DNA from: Pseudohalioglobus sediminis
GTDB taxonomy: Bacteria; Pseudomonadota; Gammaproteobacteria; Pseudomonadales; Halieaceae
NCBI RefSeq assembly: GCF_008370495.1
Contig: NZ_VTUX01000002.1
Span: forward strand, 372,001-436,000
DNA: 64,000 nt
Direction: 5' to 3'
Below, piece by piece: positions 37,919 to 44,576 of this stretch. The first letter of the stretch is position 1; the number at the start of each line of letters is the position of its first letter. The position numbers and the translations under genes were made by a program. Under the pieces are notes generated by a model. That model saw only the letters and a list, made by a program, of their open reading frames with translations, was not told the DNA's origin and searched no databases.

Positions 37919-40900
37919 CTAGTCACAGGCCGCCAGCAAAAATACCTGGGGTTCACCGTCCGCAGGCACCGGCGAGCGAGGCTGCCCACTGGCTGCCAGT
38001 TGCAGCGTGGGGATCAGCTTGTCACGCTGACGCTTGCCGGCGCTGGCATTGCGCGCCGCAGCAAGTGGCGCAGCGGCAAACGCCGCGTCACGCTGTGCCT
38101 CCGGCGCGTCCGCGTAAAGCGTGGTGCGCATGCGCGGCTCCCTGTGCAAACGCCTGATCTGCTGTTCCATTTGCGTTGGTGACCACTCCTGGCCGTGGCC
38201 GGACCCTGCCGCACGGGTGATACTTTCATTCATCAGGGTTCCGCCGAGGTCATTGGCACCGGCTGCCAGGCAGGTGGCGACACCCTCCGCTCCCATCTTC
38301 ACCCAGGATGTCTGGATATTGTCGATAAGGCCGTGGAACACCAACCGCGCTACCGCATGCATCAGCACCGCTTCGCGGAAAGTCGGCCCGCGGCGGGCGT
38401 TGCCCTTGAGATACAGAGGCGCTTCCATGTGCACAAAGGGCAGCGGTACGAACTCGGTGAAACCGCCGGTGCGCTGCTGCAGTTCGCGCACCAGGCGCAA
38501 GTGCCTTGCCCAGTGGCGCGGCGCCTCCACATGGCCGTACATGATCGTGGCCGTGGTGCGCAGCCCAAGCTCGTGCGCCGCCTCCATAACGTGTAACCAT
38601 TGCGCCGTGTCGAGCTTATCCGGGCACAGGACGGCCCGCACCTCGTCGTGGAGAATTTCCGCAGCTGTACCCGGCAGCGTGCCCAGCCCGGCGTCACGCA
38701 GCTGGCGCAGGTAGTCCCGGACCTCGATTCCCAGCGTCTGCGCCCCCTGCCATACCTCCAGTGGTGAAAATGCGTGCACATGCATCCCCGGGGTTGCCAG
38801 GTGCACCGTGTGCAGGATGTCCAGGTAGGTCTGGCCGGTGTAATCCGGGTGGATACCACCCTGCATGCAGACCTCGGTCGCGCCACGTTCCCAGGCCTCG
38901 GTGCAGCGACGCGCTATCTCCTCACCGCTGATATCGTAGGGGCGACCGCGCAGGTTTTCGCTGGCCTTGCCCTTGGAAAACGCGCAGAACTGGCATTTGA
39001 AATAACACACATTGGTGTAGTTAATGTTGCGGTTCACCACATAGCTCACGCTGTCACCCACGGTGCTCGCGCGCAAGTCGTCAGCCTGCTTTACCAGGTA
39101 GGCGAAATCGGCGCCGCGGCTCTGGAACAGCCGCTCGATGTCCGCATCAGCAAGTTGCGCCTGCGCTCGACAGCGTTTGACGATTTCCCGGAGTTCGGGG
39201 GAAACCGCTGCAGGCGCCGGATCCAGCGCCAGTAGACCCCGCTCCACTTCGGGTATGTCGCGCTCTTCACCGGGCACCCATGGGTCGCGACGCGCAAAGC
39301 CCATGCTGTCACTGTGGTTCAGCACCGCCGTGTGCACGGCAGGATCCAACCAGCGCGCTCGCCCGGCCACATAGGCCGGATAGATGGTGAGCCGCTGATC
39401 CAGGAATTTTCCCGCAGCCGCGGTCTCACGTGCCAGTTTATCCAGGTGTGGCCACGGCGCCTCAGGATTGACATGATCAGGCGTCAGCGGCGACACACCG
39501 CCCCAGTCGTTGATGCCCGCCGCGACCAGTTGCTGCAGGACACCAGGGCTGAGGTTCGGCGGCGCCTGGATGCTCATCCGGGCACCAAAGACGAGCCGCG
39601 CCACGGCAATGGTCCAGAGCAGTTCCTCGAGGTCAGGCTCCGGAGCCTCGGCCATCAGGGTGCCTGGTTTGGCGCGAAAATTTTGGATGATCACTTCCTG
39701 CAGGTGGCCGTGACGCGCGTGCACGTCGCGCAGCGCCAGCATGGATTCGATACGCTCCCGGCGTGTCTCACCAATACCGATCAGAATGCCGGAGGTGAAC
39801 GGCACCGCAGCCTGGCCCGCCAGCTCCAGCGTCTCCAGGCGGCGCTCGGGCTGCTTGTCCGGGGACCCGTAATGCGGCATACCCTTGTCACACAATCGCG
39901 GTGCCGAGGATTCCAGCATGATTCCCATGGAGGCACTGACCTGGCGCAGCGAAGCGAGTTCCTCTGCCGTCATGCAACCGGCATTGATATGCGGCAATAG
40001 CCCGGTCTCCTGCAATACCCGGGCGGCCACATCGCGCAGGTATTCCAGCGTGGTGCCATAGCCCATCTCCGCCAGCGCTGCGCGGGCGGCGTTATAGCGT
40101 AGTTCGGGTCTCTCACCGAGGGTAAACAGCGCTTCCTGGCAACCCATGGCGGCACCGCGCCGGCACAGTTCCAGCACCTCTTCTACCGGCATGAAGGGGC
40201 TGTCGATGCGTTTTGGCGTCTGTGCAAAAGTGCAGTAGTGACACACGTCACGGCAGAGCTGGGTCAGGGGAATAAACACCTTGCGCGAGTACGTCACCAG
40301 ATTACCGTGCCCACGGTCTCGCAGTTCGCCTGCCAGCGCCATCAGCGCAGGGGTATCGTCACACGCTGCCAGCGAAAGGGCCGCGCTAGCGCTGGGCAGT
40401 TCTCCAGCGAGCATGTCCTTGCGCAAGGTTTGCCACTGGCTCTCCGGGAGGGGCGCCATGCGTTGCGCCAGTCCGCTATCGAGCAGGAACTGCCGGGTAT
40501 GCAGGCCGGCATCCTCGTGTCTGATAAGGTGGGCGATATCCGCAAGCTCATCGACATCGAGAGCCAATCCTTCGCGCTGCAATACTTCAACCGTCATGCC
40601 ATCTACGTGTGCGGCGTCGGCGTGGCGCCGTTGGCTGTCCTCGCCAAATTCGAACTGCGGCAGGTAGTCGGCGCTAAACAACAGCATATTGGTGCCCTGG
40701 CCCGCCACGTCGGTAGCAATCACCACACCCCGCTGCGGGGGCAAGGCGTCCAGCGCCGCGTCCACGTCACCCGCGCGCATCAGCGGCAGGTCTGCGTGGC
40801 ACACCAGCAGCGCCTGCGCGCCCTGGCCTCTCAACCCGGCCGCCGTCTCCGCCAGCGCACCATTGAGGCCACGATGGTTTAGACCAGTCTCATCCACGAA

Positions 40901-41116
40901 ATCAATATCCAGCTCAGCCGCTATCTCAGCTGCCGCCGGATCGGGCGAAAGCAGGGTCACCGCAGCGATGCGGGGATGGCGTCGCAGGACAGTAAGCACG
41001 TCCCTGGCCATGGCCACCACCAGGCCCGCACGCTCCGCCGGCGTCAGCCAGGTCGACAGGCGGGTTTTCGCCGCGCTGAAACAGTTGAGTGGAACCAGGG
41101 CGTGGACTTTGTTCAC
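37919..41116 (-). CDS. fbiC: Trifunctional F420 biosynthesis protein: CofC-like guanylyltransferase fused to Fo synthase (CofG+CofH)
   Basis: The 1065-residue protein joins three domains. Residues about 1-205 are a CofC/FbiD nucleotidyltransferase (VPLNCFSAAKTRLS, CHADLPLM), which activates a phospho-acid (phospholactate, phosphoenolpyruvate or 3-phosphoglycerate) with GTP. Residues about 270-600 are the CofG radical-SAM half with C288-x3-C292-x2-C295. Residues about 660-1000 are the CofH half with C704-x3-C708-x2-C711. CofG and CofH together make the deazaflavin Fo from a pyrimidine intermediate and tyrosine. CofG-CofH fusion is normal in actinobacteria (FbiC); the extra CofC domain is unusual. 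The GTG start at 41116 overlaps the cofD stop by four bases (GTGA), after a CTGGAG site. The activated acid cannot be read from sequence. Confidence 0.93.
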   Translation of the reverse strand: MNKVHALVPLNCFSAAKTRLSTWLTPAERAGLVVAMARDVLTVLRRHPRIAAVTLLSPDPAAAEIAAELDIDFVDETGLNHRGLNGALAETAAGLRGQGAQALLVCHADLPLMRAGDVDAALDALPPQRGVVIATDVAGQGTNMLLFSADYLPQFEFGEDSQRRHADAAHVDGMTVEVLQREGLALDVDELADIAHLIRHEDAGLHTRQFLLDSGLAQRMAPLPESQWQTLRKDMLAGELPSASAALSLAACDDTPALMALAGELRDRGHGNLVTYSRKVFIPLTQLCRDVCHYCTFAQTPKRIDSPFMPVEEVLELCRRGAAMGCQEALFTLGERPELRYNAARAALAEMGYGTTLEYLRDVAARVLQETGLLPHINAGCMTAEELASLRQVSASMGIMLESSAPRLCDKGMPHYGSPDKQPERRLETLELAGQAAVPFTSGILIGIGETRRERIESMLALRDVHARHGHLQEVIIQNFRAKPGTLMAEAPEPDLEELLWTIAVARLVFGARMSIQAPPNLSPGVLQQLVAAGINDWGGVSPLTPDHVNPEAPWPHLDKLARETAAAGKFLDQRLTIYPAYVAGRARWLDPAVHTAVLNHSDSMGFARRDPWVPGEERDIPEVERGLLALDPAPAAVSPELREIVKRCRAQAQLADADIERLFQSRGADFAYLVKQADDLRASTVGDSVSYVVNRNINYTNVCYFKCQFCAFSKGKASENLRGRPYDISGEEIARRCTEAWERGATEVCMQGGIHPDYTGQTYLDILHTVHLATPGMHVHAFSPLEVWQGAQTLGIEVRDYLRQLRDAGLGTLPGTAAEILHDEVRAVLCPDKLDTAQWLHVMEAAHELGLRTTATIMYGHVEAPRHWARHLRLVRELQQRTGGFTEFVPLPFVHMEAPLYLKGNARRGPTFREAVLMHAVARLVFHGLIDNIQTSWVKMGAEGVATCLAAGANDLGGTLMNESITRAAGSGHGQEWSPTQMEQQIRRLHREPRMRTTLYADAPEAQRDAAFAAAPLAAARNASAGKRQRDKLIPTLQLAASGQPRSPVPADGEPQVFLLAACD

Positions 41117-42099
41117 GGGGACTCCAGGGCCAGGCAAGTTTTCGCCAGTTGCGTTTTGTCGTAAATATCATGCATCAGGGTGCGCGCAGTGTGCGGGCGC
41201 AAGCCGACGGCTTCAACTTCCTGTGCCAGTGTAGCGTCCGCATGATCCAGCAGGAAGTAGTCAACCAGGCCAGGATAGTTGTCCGCGTAGTGCCGGGCCA
41301 CGCCTGCCGCGGTGACCGGCACCTGCAGTTCGGCCATCATTTTTGCCGCCGGCCCCTTTATCGCCGCGCCCTGGATGATAGGTGACACCAGAATGACCGG
41401 CGCCGGGTGATCGCGCAGAGCCTGCCACATTCCGGGCAGCTTGAGTATCGGATCGATGCTGACATAGGGATTGGAAGGACAGACCACGATGTGACTGAGC
41501 TCCTTGCCGGCCAGCAACGCCATGACATCCGGATTGGCTTGTGCCTGGTCCAGCCCGGCGAAGGAAAACCCGTGCACCCGGGGCTGGCAGCGCCGGCGCA
41601 CGAAATAATGCTGGAATGGCAGGTCGCCCTCTGCACAGTGCACCGTGGTACGCACTGGCTGCGCGCTCATGGGGTGAACATGGCTGTGTACTCCCATGCG
41701 TGAGGCCAGCTCCCGCGTCACCGAGATCAGGTCAACGCCGGCAAGCAGCTGGCTGCTGCGCCAGAGGTGGGTCGCCAGGTCGCTGTCGCCAAGCTGGAAC
41801 CAGGTCTCGCCACCCAGCGCTTCCAGGGCTGCCATCACCTGCCAGGTCTCACCGGCCAGCCCCCAGCCCTGTTCCGGGTTGGCACGGTCGGAAAGCGTAT
41901 ATAGAAGCGTATCGATATCGGGGCTGATATGCAGGCCCAGGTGCTGGAAATCATCACCGGTGTTGACCAGAACGTGCAGGGCACCCGCGGGCAGGATGCG
42001 GTCTAGCCCCAGCGCCAGCTTGGCGCCGCCCACACCACCCGATAGCGCCAGCACACAAGTTTCCGCCGGTTTATCCTGCGCTGTGTCCCCCGGCGGCAT
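41113..42099 (-). CDS. cofD: 2-phospho-L-lactate transferase (CofD/FbiA)
   Basis: CofD couples the guanylylated phospho-acid to Fo, giving F420-0 (or dehydro-F420-0). The 328-residue protein has the family glycine loop ALSGGVGGAKLALGL, the substrate block VNTGDDFQHLGLHISPDIDT, and CPSNPYVSIDPIL. The ATG at 42099 overlaps the cofE stop by one base (TGATG), and its own stop overlaps the next start by four bases. The three genes are therefore translationally coupled, in the order of late-pathway enzymes. Confidence 0.95.
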   Translation of the reverse strand: MPPGDTAQDKPAETCVLALSGGVGGAKLALGLDRILPAGALHVLVNTGDDFQHLGLHISPDIDTLLYTLSDRANPEQGWGLAGETWQVMAALEALGGETWFQLGDSDLATHLWRSSQLLAGVDLISVTRELASRMGVHSHVHPMSAQPVRTTVHCAEGDLPFQHYFVRRRCQPRVHGFSFAGLDQAQANPDVMALLAGKELSHIVVCPSNPYVSIDPILKLPGMWQALRDHPAPVILVSPIIQGAAIKGPAAKMMAELQVPVTAAGVARHYADNYPGLVDYFLLDHADATLAQEVEAVGLRPHTARTLMHDIYDKTQLAKTCLALESP

Positions 42100-42866
42100 C
42101 AGCGAAACATATCCATGTGCCGCTCACGCAACAGGCTTTGTGAACCCACACTGGCCTCGGACAGCTTCAGCCCGCGTACCAGCACCACGGGGCAGCCCTC
42201 GGCCGCCTGCCCCATGACCAGTGAGGCCGCCGCTGCCAACTCATCGGCCACCGCCGGCTCAGTCACCTCAAGCACATTGCCGAACAGGTCACGCTCGCCC
42301 ACCTGGTTGTGCGTCGGCTGCAGGCCTGCGGTGCCGATGGCCATACCCACAGTGCCGTTGCGCCAGGCGCGTCCCACGCTGTCATTGATGATCACCTGTG
42401 GGTAAACGCCGCTGCGCTGGCCGAGTTGACGACGCAAACTGGCCGCGGACTGGTCGGGGTCATCCGGCAGCAGCAGCACCGTTGGATCCTCGGGAGAGTT
42501 CTCAATGTTGGACTTGTCGATGCCGGCATTGGCCATTACATAGCCATTGCGATGTTCTACGATCACCACTCCGGGTCGCACCCGCAGCACCTCGCGACTC
42601 TCCTGCAGCACGAGTTCCGCCTGACGCGGATCCTTGTCAGCACGCCGGGCGAGTTCCCGCGCCGCTGGCGAGGGTTGCACATCAGCCAGGCGCACATAGC
42701 GCCCTTCTGCCTTGGATACGATCTTCTGCGCCAGCACCAGCACGTCGCCTGCCTGCAGGCACAGCTGGTTGCTGCCCAGGCAGTCGAGCAACAGCGCCGC
42801 CAGGTCATCCCCGGGACTCACCAGGGGAAAATCGTCCAGCGCTAACAGCTGCACGGAATTTGCCAT
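42099..42866 (-). CDS. cofE: Coenzyme F420-0:L-glutamate ligase
   Basis: CofE adds gamma-linked glutamates to F420-0 with GTP. The 255-residue product contains VLAQKIVSKAEGR, NGYVMANAGIDKSNI and NDSVGRAWRNGTVGMAIG, all conserved in the family. It lacks the C-terminal FMN-binding nitroreductase-like domain that actinobacterial FbiB has, so reduction of a dehydro-intermediate, if needed, must come from elsewhere. I use the ATG at 42866 (19 bases after npdG); GTG at 42893 or TTG at 42896 would overlap npdG and are possible alternatives. Confidence 0.93.
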   Translation of the reverse strand: MANSVQLLALDDFPLVSPGDDLAALLLDCLGSNQLCLQAGDVLVLAQKIVSKAEGRYVRLADVQPSPAARELARRADKDPRQAELVLQESREVLRVRPGVVIVEHRNGYVMANAGIDKSNIENSPEDPTVLLLPDDPDQSAASLRRQLGQRSGVYPQVIINDSVGRAWRNGTVGMAIGTAGLQPTHNQVGERDLFGNVLEVTEPAVADELAAAASLVMGQAAEGCPVVLVRGLKLSEASVGSQSLLRERHMDMFR

Positions 42867-42885
42867 GCTAAAAAGCGGTCTGGAA

Positions 42886-43566
42886 TCAGTCACCAATGCC
42901 GGTAATGCGAATCCCGGCGTGGCAGCTGTACTGTTTGTTAATGACGATCAGCACCGAGGTGAGCGCCTCGGCGGCTGCGGCATTGTTGATCATGCCGGCG
43001 TGGAATCCACGCATACCGGCCGCTTCAACCAGTTTGATGACCTGCTCGCGGGCATCCTTCTTATTGCCACAAACCAGCACATCGCAGTCGACACCGCTGC
43101 CTTCCTGCAGGTGGGCTGCTGCCACATTCTGGAACGCCGACACCACGGCAACGTCCTCGCCAAGGAGGTCCTGGGCGATCTGCCCGGCGCTACCGCCCTC
43201 CGGTAACTGCACACGCCCCACGCGGGGGGGCACCAGCGGCACGGTGACATCGACCAGAATCTTGCCCTGCAGGGCGGGCTTCACCAGTTCCAGGGTGGCG
43301 GCCTGATGACTGAAGGGAACAGTAATGGCAACGATATCTCCGGCCTCGGCGGCGGCCAGGTTTTCCATGGCGCGAACGCTGACCTCGGCGACGCCACGCT
43401 CCGCCATCACCTCGTGCAGGTCAGCGACCGCGGTCTCGGCCTTGTCCAGCGTGCGCGAACCGATAATGACCTCATACCCGGCTTGCGCCCAGCGGCGCGC
43501 GAGACCGGTGCCAAGATCGCCAGTGCCACCGAGAATCGCCAGAACCGGAAGTGTATCTGTTGTCAT
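42886..43566 (-). CDS. npdG: F420H2:NADP+ oxidoreductase
   Basis: NpdG transfers hydride between NADPH and F420, linking the cofactor to the general redox pool. The 226-residue product has an N-terminal Rossmann loop (LAILGGTGDLGTGLARRW). The GSRTLDKAE segment that follows supplies Ser-Arg for the NADP 2'-phosphate, and a later VSAFQNVAAAHL helix is typical of the family. It resembles archaeal/actinobacterial Fno rather than 6-phosphogluconate dehydrogenases. It is the first gene of the F420 operon, with an AGGA ribosome-binding site 9 bases before the ATG. Confidence 0.92.
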   Translation of the reverse strand: MTTDTLPVLAILGGTGDLGTGLARRWAQAGYEVIIGSRTLDKAETAVADLHEVMAERGVAEVSVRAMENLAAAEAGDIVAITVPFSHQAATLELVKPALQGKILVDVTVPLVPPRVGRVQLPEGGSAGQIAQDLLGEDVAVVSAFQNVAAAHLQEGSGVDCDVLVCGNKKDAREQVIKLVEAAGMRGFHAGMINNAAAAEALTSVLIVINKQYSCHAGIRITGIGD

Positions 43567-43775: not shown

Positions 43776-44576
43776 ATGGACAATGCAGTACAAATTAGCC
43801 CCGCAGAAGCGATGGACTTTTCCGGAAAAGCCGTGATTGTTACCGGGGGAGGCAAGGGAATCGGCCGCGGCATCAGCGAGTGCTTCCTGGCGGCTGGCGC
43901 GGATGTGCTTATTTGCGGTCGCTCTGCTCCGGAGACTCTGCCCGAGGCAGGCGGCAAGTGCGCGCTGTTCACTGCCTGCGATGTACGTGATTTTGAGCAG
44001 ATCGAGGCCTGCGTGGAATACGCCGTTTCCCGGTTTGGTCGCCTCGATGTGTTAGTGAACAACGCCGGCGGCGCGCCGCACGCCGATGCCGCAACCGCTT
44101 CACCCCGGTTTTCCGAGGCGATCATACGGCTCAACCTGATCGCCCCGCTGAATTTCAGCCAGGTGGCCAACCGCGTCATGCAACAGCAGGACAGCGGCGG
44201 CAGCATCATCAATATTGCCAGTGTCAGCACCATTCGCCCCTCCCCCGGCACAGCCGCGTACGGTGCAGCCAAGGCCGGACTGGTGAATCTCGGCACATCC
44301 CTGGCGGTGGAGTGGGCACCCAGGGTACGCGTTAATGCCATCATCGTCGGCCTGACCCAAACCGAGCAGTCGCACCTGCATTACGGCGACGAAGCCGGTA
44401 TCGCCGCAGTCGGTTCGACCATTCCCCTCGGCCGTATGGCCGTACCCGATGATGTAGGCAATGCCTGCCTGTTCCTGGCTTCGCCGATGGCATCCTATGT
44501 CAGTGGCACCAGTATTGCCGTGCACGGTGGCGGCGAAAAACCCGCATTCCTCGACGCGGCCAACGCTGGACAGTAA
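43776..44576 (+). CDS. Short-chain dehydrogenase/reductase
   Basis: The 266-residue classical SDR has the cofactor loop TGGGKGIGRGISE, the NNAG motif, the catalytic Ser in NIASVSTIRP and the YGAAKAG catalytic Tyr-x3-Lys. The C-terminal segment is typical of 3-oxoacyl-ACP reductase-like members. The substrate is not determined. It is divergent from npdG (209-base gap). SDRs use NAD(P), so proximity to F420 genes does not imply that it uses F420. Confidence 0.85.
   Translation: MDNAVQISPAEAMDFSGKAVIVTGGGKGIGRGISECFLAAGADVLICGRSAPETLPEAGGKCALFTACDVRDFEQIEACVEYAVSRFGRLDVLVNNAGGAPHADAATASPRFSEAIIRLNLIAPLNFSQVANRVMQQQDSGGSIINIASVSTIRPSPGTAAYGAAKAGLVNLGTSLAVEWAPRVRVNAIIVGLTQTEQSHLHYGDEAGIAAVGSTIPLGRMAVPDDVGNACLFLASPMASYVSGTSIAVHGGGEKPAFLDAANAGQ

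What the first reader, a model, noticed from the sequence alone, without database searches (positions are those of the whole stretch)
37919..43566. Complete, translationally coupled coenzyme F420 operon in a gammaproteobacterial background
npdG-cofE-cofD-(cofC::cofG::cofH) are all on one strand; cofE/cofD and cofD/fbiC overlap by 1 and 4 bases. All four pathway steps (Fo synthesis, phospho-acid activation, transfer, glutamylation) plus the NADP link are present. F420 is best known from methanogens and actinobacteria and is uncommon in gammaproteobacteria. Everything else here is standard gammaproteobacterial, so this is either an ancient retained trait or an acquisition. What the cofactor does in this organism is open.
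Basis: partly seen in the sequence, partly recalled or inferred. Interest (0 to 1): 0.85.

Follow-up and report, generated by a model that had tools for sequence, protein, structure and literature searches.

The report
Gammaproteobacterial F420 operon with triple-fusion enzyme
A marine-type gammaproteobacterium carries what looks like a working gene set for the redox cofactor F420, with three of the enzymes joined in one protein; the cofactor looks normal rather than odd for its family, but the three-part enzyme seems to have evolved several times and I found no description of it.

Summary
The operon is real: npdG, cofE, cofD and a cofC::cofG::cofH fusion at 37919-43566, minus strand, all above curated cut-offs. 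The window's genus includes Seongchinamella unica (Halieaceae). The pathway is rare in the class (17 of 370 genomes), common in the order (97 of 391) and ordinary in the family (92 of 140; 24 of these, in one genus, carry a divergent version). In the tree 41 of 48 sampled family sequences, the window's included, group together; composition is flat; so it is inherited, not recent. The cofactor is probably used: 12 of 21 luciferase-like proteins pass F420-family cut-offs, two Ddn-type reductases are present, and the Ddn family occurs in 63 of 92 family genomes with the pathway and 0 of 48 without. Some users lie beside acyl-CoA catabolism genes, suggesting lipid or steroid-like breakdown (inferred). 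CofC has the residue of classical F420, not 3PG-F420. No reductase for a PEP-based route was found, so one step is unexplained. The unusual part is the CofC-CofG-CofH chain: it recurs in scattered lineages (at least 5-6 forced state changes), its CofC active-site residues stay intact, and I found no mention of it in the papers searched.

The parts
42886..43566 (-). npdG (fno), NADPH:F420 oxidoreductase, first gene of the operon
   Evidence: TIGR01915 195.2 bits against cut-off 149.8; best solved relatives are F420:NADP oxidoreductases 5n2i and 1jax
42099..42866 (-). cofE, F420-0:L-glutamate ligase, single domain, no nitroreductase domain
   Evidence: TIGR01916 282.5 against 180.65; solved CofE relatives 7uld, 2phn, 2g9i; start ATG 42866 read
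41113..42099 (-). cofD, transferase joining the phospho-acid to FO
   Evidence: TIGR01819 272.7 against 257.45; solved relatives CofD 3c3d and FbiA 6uvx
37919..41116 (-). cofC::cofG::cofH, one ORF, three domains
   Evidence: One ORF of 1072 codons from the TTG at 41137 or 1065 from GTG 41116; domain matches to TIGR03552, TIGR03550 and TIGR03551; AlphaFold2 mean pLDDT 89.6, pTM 0.87
40514..41101 (-). CofC domain of the fusion (guanylyltransferase)
   Evidence: TIGR03552 residues 13-208, 150 bits against 105; catalytic K, D, S, D, D kept and Gly at the specificity position
40376..40462 (-). CofC-CofG junction, predicted as ordered helix
   Evidence: pLDDT block means 88-97 over residues 201-260 with helices 205-214, 216-220, 225-236; sequence read
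39323..40294 (-). CofG domain (radical SAM)
   Evidence: TIGR03550 residues 282-605, 507 bits against 213; motif CRDVCHYC in the sequence
38111..39148 (-). CofH domain (radical SAM)
   Evidence: TIGR03551 residues 664-1009, 575 bits against 374; motif CYFKCQFC in the sequence; best solved sequence relative MqnE 6xi9 over residues 629-1002 of the 1065
43776..44576 (+). divergently transcribed SDR dehydrogenase, conserved neighbour, role in the pathway unproven
   Evidence: PRK07856 396 bits against 255; a relative lies beside npdG in 7 loci: L059, L060, L062, L067, L068, L070, L124; in other loci of that call none was found

Best explanation
This is a functional operon for classical coenzyme F420, vertically inherited within the family's main lineage. 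CofH and CofG make the deazaflavin head FO from tyrosine and a riboflavin precursor; CofC, fused in front of them, activates a three-carbon phospho-acid with GTP; CofD joins the two products; CofE adds glutamates; NpdG reduces F420 with NADPH. The reduced cofactor feeds luciferase-like and Ddn-type reductases, some beside acyl-CoA catabolism genes, so its likely use is hydride transfer during breakdown of lipid or steroid-like compounds. Gene identities, intact active-site residues of CofC, conservation and co-occurrence with user families are shown; cofactor production, F420 use by those proteins and the catabolic role are inferred. The fusion puts the makers of both CofD substrates on one chain in a fixed ratio; any advantage beyond that is inferred.
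For: All genes pass curated cut-offs. CofC catalytic residues are kept in all 31 fused rows (29 distinct loci). The npdG-cofE-cofD-cofC-cofGH order recurs in records from several proteobacterial classes and Acidobacteriota bins. 12 of 21 LLM proteins pass F420-family cut-offs. Two Ddn-family proteins are present, with 0 of 14 control genomes positive, both over the TIGR00026 cut-off. Co-occurrence in 140 family genomes: PF04075 63 of 92 with the pathway against 0 of 48 without; TIGR03559 77 of 92 against 3 of 48 and TIGR03617 64 of 92 against 2 of 48. Outside genus g21: 63 of 68 against 0 of 15, 66 of 68 against 1 of 15, and 63 of 68 against 1 of 15. Acyl-CoA dehydrogenase, AMP ligase or methylmalonyl-CoA mutase-type genes lie directly beside four of the twelve F420-type LLM genes: L001, L042/L143, L043/L147, L008/L144.
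Against: No F420 was measured. No gene over the dehydro-F420 reductase cut-off was found and the best-scoring nitroreductase does not track the pathway, so the phospholactyl step is unexplained. A non-F420 LLM family used as control also tracks the pathway, though less sharply (55 of 92 against 5 of 48; outside g21 51 of 68 against 3 of 15), so shared ancestry and genome size inflate all the P values. In genus g21, 0 of 24 pathway-bearing genomes have PF04075. F420 use by the LLM and Ddn proteins rests on family labels. The neighbours of LLM genes were picked by eye, with no test of enrichment.
Confidence: 0.85

Rival explanations
1. The operon makes the variant 3PG-F420 known from Mycetohabitans, using 3-phosphoglycerate, which would need no reductase.
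For: cofE has no reductase domain and no dehydro-F420 reductase was recognised; the best PDB sequence match of the CofC domain is the 3-PG enzyme 7p97.
Against: The diagnostic position (Mycetohabitans S162, Mtb FbiD G163) is Gly here and in all 31 fused rows; Hasan et al. 2022 (PMC8764529, first three of seven parts read) tie Ser or Thr there to 3-PG use.
Confidence: 0.08
2. Recent horizontal acquisition of a foreign operon that is not integrated in metabolism.
For: The pathway is rare in the class (17 of 370); deeper branches of the CofGH trees mix Alpha- and Gammaproteobacteria, Chloroflexota and Acidobacteriota; and within the family genus g21 (6 of its 24 bearers sampled) and a second copy in G042 group elsewhere, so transfers do happen.
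Against: The window's sequence groups with 40 other family rows, 22 of 28 genera have the genes, GC is flat at 0.62-0.65, ung downstream and, in 7 loci, the SDR are shared neighbours, and user families match.
Confidence: 0.05
3. The genes make only FO, for example as a photolyase antenna, and the later genes are relics.
For: FO is a known light antenna; 11 of the 97 positive order genomes carry cofG and cofH as separate genes (my reading).
Against: cofC, cofD, cofE and npdG are intact and over their cut-offs, and F420-type families co-occur. Photolyases were not searched.
Confidence: 0.04
4. The single ORF is not a functional fusion: CofC and CofGH are made separately by internal initiation or processing.
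For: An ATG lies at the window's junction, and 10 of 29 distinct fused loci have a Met in the stretch between the two matched parts.
Against: 19 of 29 have no Met in that stretch (GTG or TTG starts, and starts inside the matched parts, were not ruled out), and the junction is predicted as ordered helix.
Confidence: 0.12

Closest known systems
FbiC (CofG-CofH fusion) of Actinobacteria and Proteobacteria
   Same: Same two radical-SAM domains in the same order; the CofGH model PRK09234 scores 1161 bits against 1018.
   Different: Here a complete CofC guanylyltransferase is fused in front. The review PMC8498797 (sections 9, 23, 34 and passages read) describes the CofG-CofH and CofE-nitroreductase fusions; no CofC fusion appeared in the parts I read.
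F420 pathways of Alpha- and Betaproteobacteria (Paracoccus, Oligotropha, Mycetohabitans)
   Same: Same pathway with Fno as a reductase of F420 (review); the gene order here is that of several alpha- and betaproteobacterial loci. Paracoccus, Oligotropha and Mycetohabitans themselves were not compared.
   Different: This lineage has many F420-type enzymes, whereas the review says Mycetohabitans (P. rhizoxinica) lacks genes for known ones, and CofC here is not of the 3-PG type.
Mycobacterial F420 system (FbiABCD with LLM and Ddn families)
   Same: Same LLM families, including TIGR03559 named for Rv3520c, which two papers list among cholesterol-related genes (passages), and Ddn-type reductases (best PDB match 3r5l).
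   Different: No FbiB reductase domain, none of the 21 LLM proteins over the TIGR03557 (F420 glucose-6-phosphate dehydrogenase family) cut-off, and CofC is fused to CofGH.

Membership tests
F420 biosynthesis pathway | FO synthase with CofG and CofH domains, each with a CX3CX2C motif | tested here: met
   TIGR03550 and TIGR03551 over cut-off; motifs read in the translation
F420 biosynthesis pathway | CofC guanylyltransferase with its metal and substrate residues | tested here: met
   TIGR03552 over cut-off; K24, D116, S168, D194, D196 conserved in 31 of 31 fused rows, 29 distinct loci
F420 biosynthesis pathway | CofD transferase and CofE glutamate ligase | tested here: met
   TIGR01819 and TIGR01916 over cut-off; aligned to solved enzymes; single catalytic residues of these two were not counted
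F420 biosynthesis pathway | F420 or FO present in cells | not testable with these tools
   Needs LC-MS
3PG-F420 producers | Ser or Thr at the CofC position equal to Mycetohabitans S162 | tested here: not met
   Gly in the window and in all 31 fused rows
PEP route with dehydro-F420 reductase (mycobacterial type) | FbiB C-terminal-type nitroreductase | tested here: not met
   No match over the TIGR03553 cut-off, best 41.7 against 249.55 bits; that gene does not track the pathway. An unrelated reductase is not excluded
F420-dependent LLM and Ddn enzymes | Score over curated cut-off of an F420- or deazaflavin-labelled family | tested here: met
   12 of 21 LLM proteins and 2 of 2 PF04075 proteins
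F420-dependent LLM and Ddn enzymes | Binding of F420 rather than FMN | not testable with these tools
   Needs purified proteins

The most novel reading that the evidence does not exclude
CofC has been joined to CofG-CofH independently in several proteobacterial lineages because one chain that makes both halves of F420, the deazaflavin head and the labile GTP-activated tail, hands both to CofD. This would be a repeatedly evolved supply platform for an unstable intermediate, in a gammaproteobacterial order where F420 is a core catabolic cofactor.
Probability: 0.3. Interest if true: 0.65.

Novelty: new variant of a known kind. Interest (0 to 1): 0.5.

Why it matters
F420 is studied mostly in methanogens and Actinobacteria, and its physiological role in Gram-negative bacteria has been described as virtually unknown (PMC11104420, passages). 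A gammaproteobacterial family with named isolates, the pathway in most genera, natural pathway-free genera and enzyme families that track it makes that question testable. The recurrent CofC-CofG-CofH fusion is a natural experiment on how the unstable activated phospho-acid is passed to CofD, and a compact part for making F420 in E. coli.

Tried and rejected
A nitroreductase at C16:224661 (41.7 bits to the FbiB C-terminal model), next to an LLM gene, looked like a possible dehydro-F420 reductase. It does not track the pathway (36 of 92 with, 30 of 48 without) and was rejected.

The 3PG-F420 reading was rejected on the diagnostic residue. A recent foreign origin was rejected for the window on composition, synteny and trees. 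No RNA family (gathering cut-offs) or tRNA was found in the window. Promoter and terminator scans gave no more than chance (2 found, 1.6 expected; 6 found, 5.0 expected).

As a negative control for co-occurrence I used a non-F420 LLM family (TIGR03558). It also correlates with the pathway (55 of 92 against 5 of 48), so I do not lean on the P values; the sharper fact is 0 of 48 for PF04075.

On re-checking I found that my first trees held no genus g21 rows. One search fetched 20 more family loci and one search put 18 of them in the tree (two left out as repeats of L124 and L062, judged by equal contig length; four near-copies were also left out). This showed that family rows are not one clade: 6 g21 rows and one extra copy in G042 (L199) group elsewhere. 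The claim 'inherited from the family's ancestor' was narrowed accordingly.

In the fusion tree I dropped 40 loci before counting: 38 where no CofC was found upstream of CofGH on the same strand, and 2 duplicates. The 20 loci were picked partly because they looked fused or in frame, so the fused fraction among them is not a frequency. Fusion state was not scored for the loci.

Papers: PMC8498797 outline, sections 9, 23, 34 and passages; PMC8764529 first three of seven parts; PMC6450877, PMC11104420, PMC6429209, PMC4626898, PMC6279831, PMC5623714 passages only; all others in the listings were seen as listings only. Ney et al. 2017 was not held. 'Not found in print' rests on searches.
Full report
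Observation. The four ORFs are on the minus strand at the stated places and every domain scores above its curated NCBIfam cut-off. Junctions: TGATG between cofE and cofD, GTGA between cofD and the fusion, and a 19-base gap between npdG and cofE. The fusion is one open frame; the same single frame occurs in relatives assembled in one contig (G027 and G053) and in the named record of Seongchinamella unica (L059), so it is not a sequencing artefact.

Which organism. The window is contig C16:372001-436000 of a 4.43 Mb assembly. The same-genus locus L014 lies whole inside the named locus L059 of Seongchinamella unica, a member of Halieaceae. That same-genus genome is therefore this species or one identical there, and the window belongs to its genus group.

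How common. With the fusion protein as query, relatives were found in 92 of 140 family genomes and 22 of 28 genera, 97 of 391 evenly drawn order genomes and 40 of 137 genera, and 17 of 370 class genomes and 15 of 273 genera. All three include the window's own genome. Searches used genomes at least 90 percent complete and E <= 1e-80; one search used E <= 1e-30 with no completeness limit. In one search, 11 of the 97 have cofG and cofH as separate genes (my reading); one (G766) matches CofG only. Of the 92 family genomes, 24 belong to genus g21 and carry a version only about 55 percent identical. Rare in the class, common in the order and ordinary in the family.

Ancestry. In a 105-row CofGH tree, 41 of 48 family rows, the window's included, group together with four bins of unnamed family (support 92); the six g21 rows form their own distant clade (100*), and one extra copy, L199 of G042, groups with another gammaproteobacterial bin. 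So the window's operon belongs to the family's main lineage, while g21 probably got its version separately; only 6 of the 24 g21 bearers were sampled. Deeper branches mix classes and phyla. GC is 0.62-0.65 across the operon, within the 0.58-0.65 of the 22 kb profiled. The npdG-cofE-cofD-cofC-cofGH order recurs in many loci, and in seven Halieaceae and Spongiibacteraceae-type loci an SDR gene lies beside npdG. A deeper transfer into the order is possible.

The fusion. Among 98 loci with both genes (97 different sequences; L067 and L175 are the same), 29 have CofC and CofGH in one frame without a stop, 13 in the same frame with one or more stops between, and 56 in different frames. The fewest changes of the fused state are 11 on the 98-row tree, with at least 6 forced by starred branches, and 8 on a 42-row tree with bootstraps, with at least 5 forced; in 0 percent of 200 bootstrap trees are fused rows one group. 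Counts of change cannot tell gain from loss. The junctions differ in length (0 to 60 residues between the matched parts) and 21 of the 23 rows on the far side of the 98-row tree are out of frame, which suits repeated gain. Nine of the 13 in-frame neighbours are parted by a single stop, which shows how small the step can be. In the family table I count 19 of 92 genomes with one frame over the whole query, or 20 with G026, whose gene is cut by a contig end (my reading). Active-site positions of CofC are kept in all 31 fused rows, 29 distinct loci. AlphaFold2 gives mean pLDDT 89.6 and pTM 0.87 for the chain, with confident helices through the junction; the tool gives no inter-domain error, so a fixed arrangement is suggested, not shown. 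Only four of its 47 alignment rows are fused. Foldseek finds MqnE, and FbiD, Mycetohabitans CofC and M. mazei CofC; it lists no ranges, so the assignment to domains follows from match length and.

Which F420. By the alignment the window has FGEDS where Mtb FbiD has FGPDS; the paper PMC8764529 equates FbiD G163 with Mycetohabitans S162, the residue tied to 3-PG use. HMMER's own alignment to the Mycetohabitans enzyme has a gap there, so the register rests on FbiD. Gly is found in all fused rows. So classical F420 is expected. CofE has no nitroreductase domain, no gene passes the FbiB C-terminal cut-off, and the best nitroreductase does not follow the pathway. Whether 2-phospho-lactate or PEP is the start, and what reduces a PEP product, is open.

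Use. The genome has 21 LLM genes; 12 pass cut-offs of F420-labelled families: TIGR03559 twice, TIGR03617 three times, TIGR03619 five times, TIGR03841 and TIGR03857 once each. One passes a non-F420 family (TIGR03558); the remaining eight pass none. PF04075, the Ddn family, has two members with 0 of 14 control genomes positive; both pass TIGR00026 and the one tested has mycobacterial Ddn as its best PDB match. Of three PF01243 matches, one passes an FMN family and one falls below the F420 cut-offs; the third was not classified.

Co-occurrence. In 140 family genomes PF04075 is in 63 of 92 with cofGH and 0 of 48 without; TIGR03559 77 of 92 against 3 of 48; TIGR03617 64 of 92 against 2 of 48. The exceptions (G007, G082, G106, G111) are 60 to 84 percent complete. 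Outside g21 the figures are 63 of 68 against 0 of 15, 66 of 68 against 1 of 15, and 63 of 68 against 1 of 15. The control family TIGR03558 is 55 of 92 against 5 of 48, and 51 of 68 against 3 of 15 outside g21, so ancestry and genome size contribute; the zero is the stronger fact. In g21 PF04075 is absent from all 24 pathway-bearing members, so there the cofactor must serve other enzymes, if it is made.

Setting of the user genes. Neighbours of LLM genes were picked by eye and annotated, with no background for comparison. Directly beside four of the twelve F420-type LLM genes are an acyl-CoA dehydrogenase (L001), an AMP-binding ligase followed by two thiolases (L143), an acyl-CoA dehydrogenase (L147), and MeaB with methylmalonyl-CoA mutase (L144). 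Weaker cases: a thiolase-like gene below its cut-off (L148), an AMP ligase about 3 kb away (L146), a P450 about 4 kb away (L139). TIGR03559 is named for Rv3520c, which two papers list among mycobacterial cholesterol genes. I infer a role in lipid or steroid-like catabolism; no substrate is shown.

Known or new. A broad presence of F420 genes in Gram-negative bacteria is in print (PMC11104420, passage). The CofG-CofH and CofE-reductase fusions are known (PMC8498797). I found no mention of a CofC-CofG-CofH fusion, nor of F420 in Halieaceae, in the searches made; most subscription papers are not in that library and Ney et al. 2017 could not be read. I rate the operon itself ordinary for its family and the fusion a new variant of a known kind.

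Noticed in passing
L064, L065, L069, L074, L161, L162, L168, L174 (CofC), and L080: In 8 of 77 non-fused CofC rows the substrate-specificity position is Asp (motif FDGxS or YDGxS), and Asn in L080, a residue not discussed in the parts of the CofC specificity paper that I read; it may mark another substrate preference.
   Followed up: partly
G196, G223, G268, G287, G306, G360, G377, G423, G437, G495 (family f24, genus g51) and G229 (f35); Genomes of the same order carry separate cofG and cofH genes, roughly 50 percent identical to the window's domains; perhaps FO only, for photolyase.
   Followed up: no
G000 contig C16 (576 kb): 10 of the genome's 21 LLM genes lie on the contig that holds the F420 operon, about 13 percent of the assembly.
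   Followed up: no
G056-G112 (genus g21); L181-L186: 24 of 57 genomes have cofGH, in a divergent version that groups apart from the rest of the family (6 sampled), with no PF04075 and few F420-LLM genes: probably a second, separate F420 pathway in one family.
   Followed up: partly
G042: C5:9849-12161 (L199) and C61:11708-12838: One family genome carries two different CofGH sequences; the copy in L199 groups with a distant gammaproteobacterial bin. It may be a second pathway or contamination of the bin.
   Followed up: partly
L180:1768-5077: One Ddn-type gene lies beside an old-yellow-enzyme/FadH-like gene (best model a mycofactocin-system OYE, below cut-off) and a carboxymuconolactone decarboxylase-like gene, also below cut-off.
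   Followed up: no
L135: A bin labelled Rhodocyclaceae falls inside the gammaproteobacterial clade; probably a misplaced contig.
   Followed up: no
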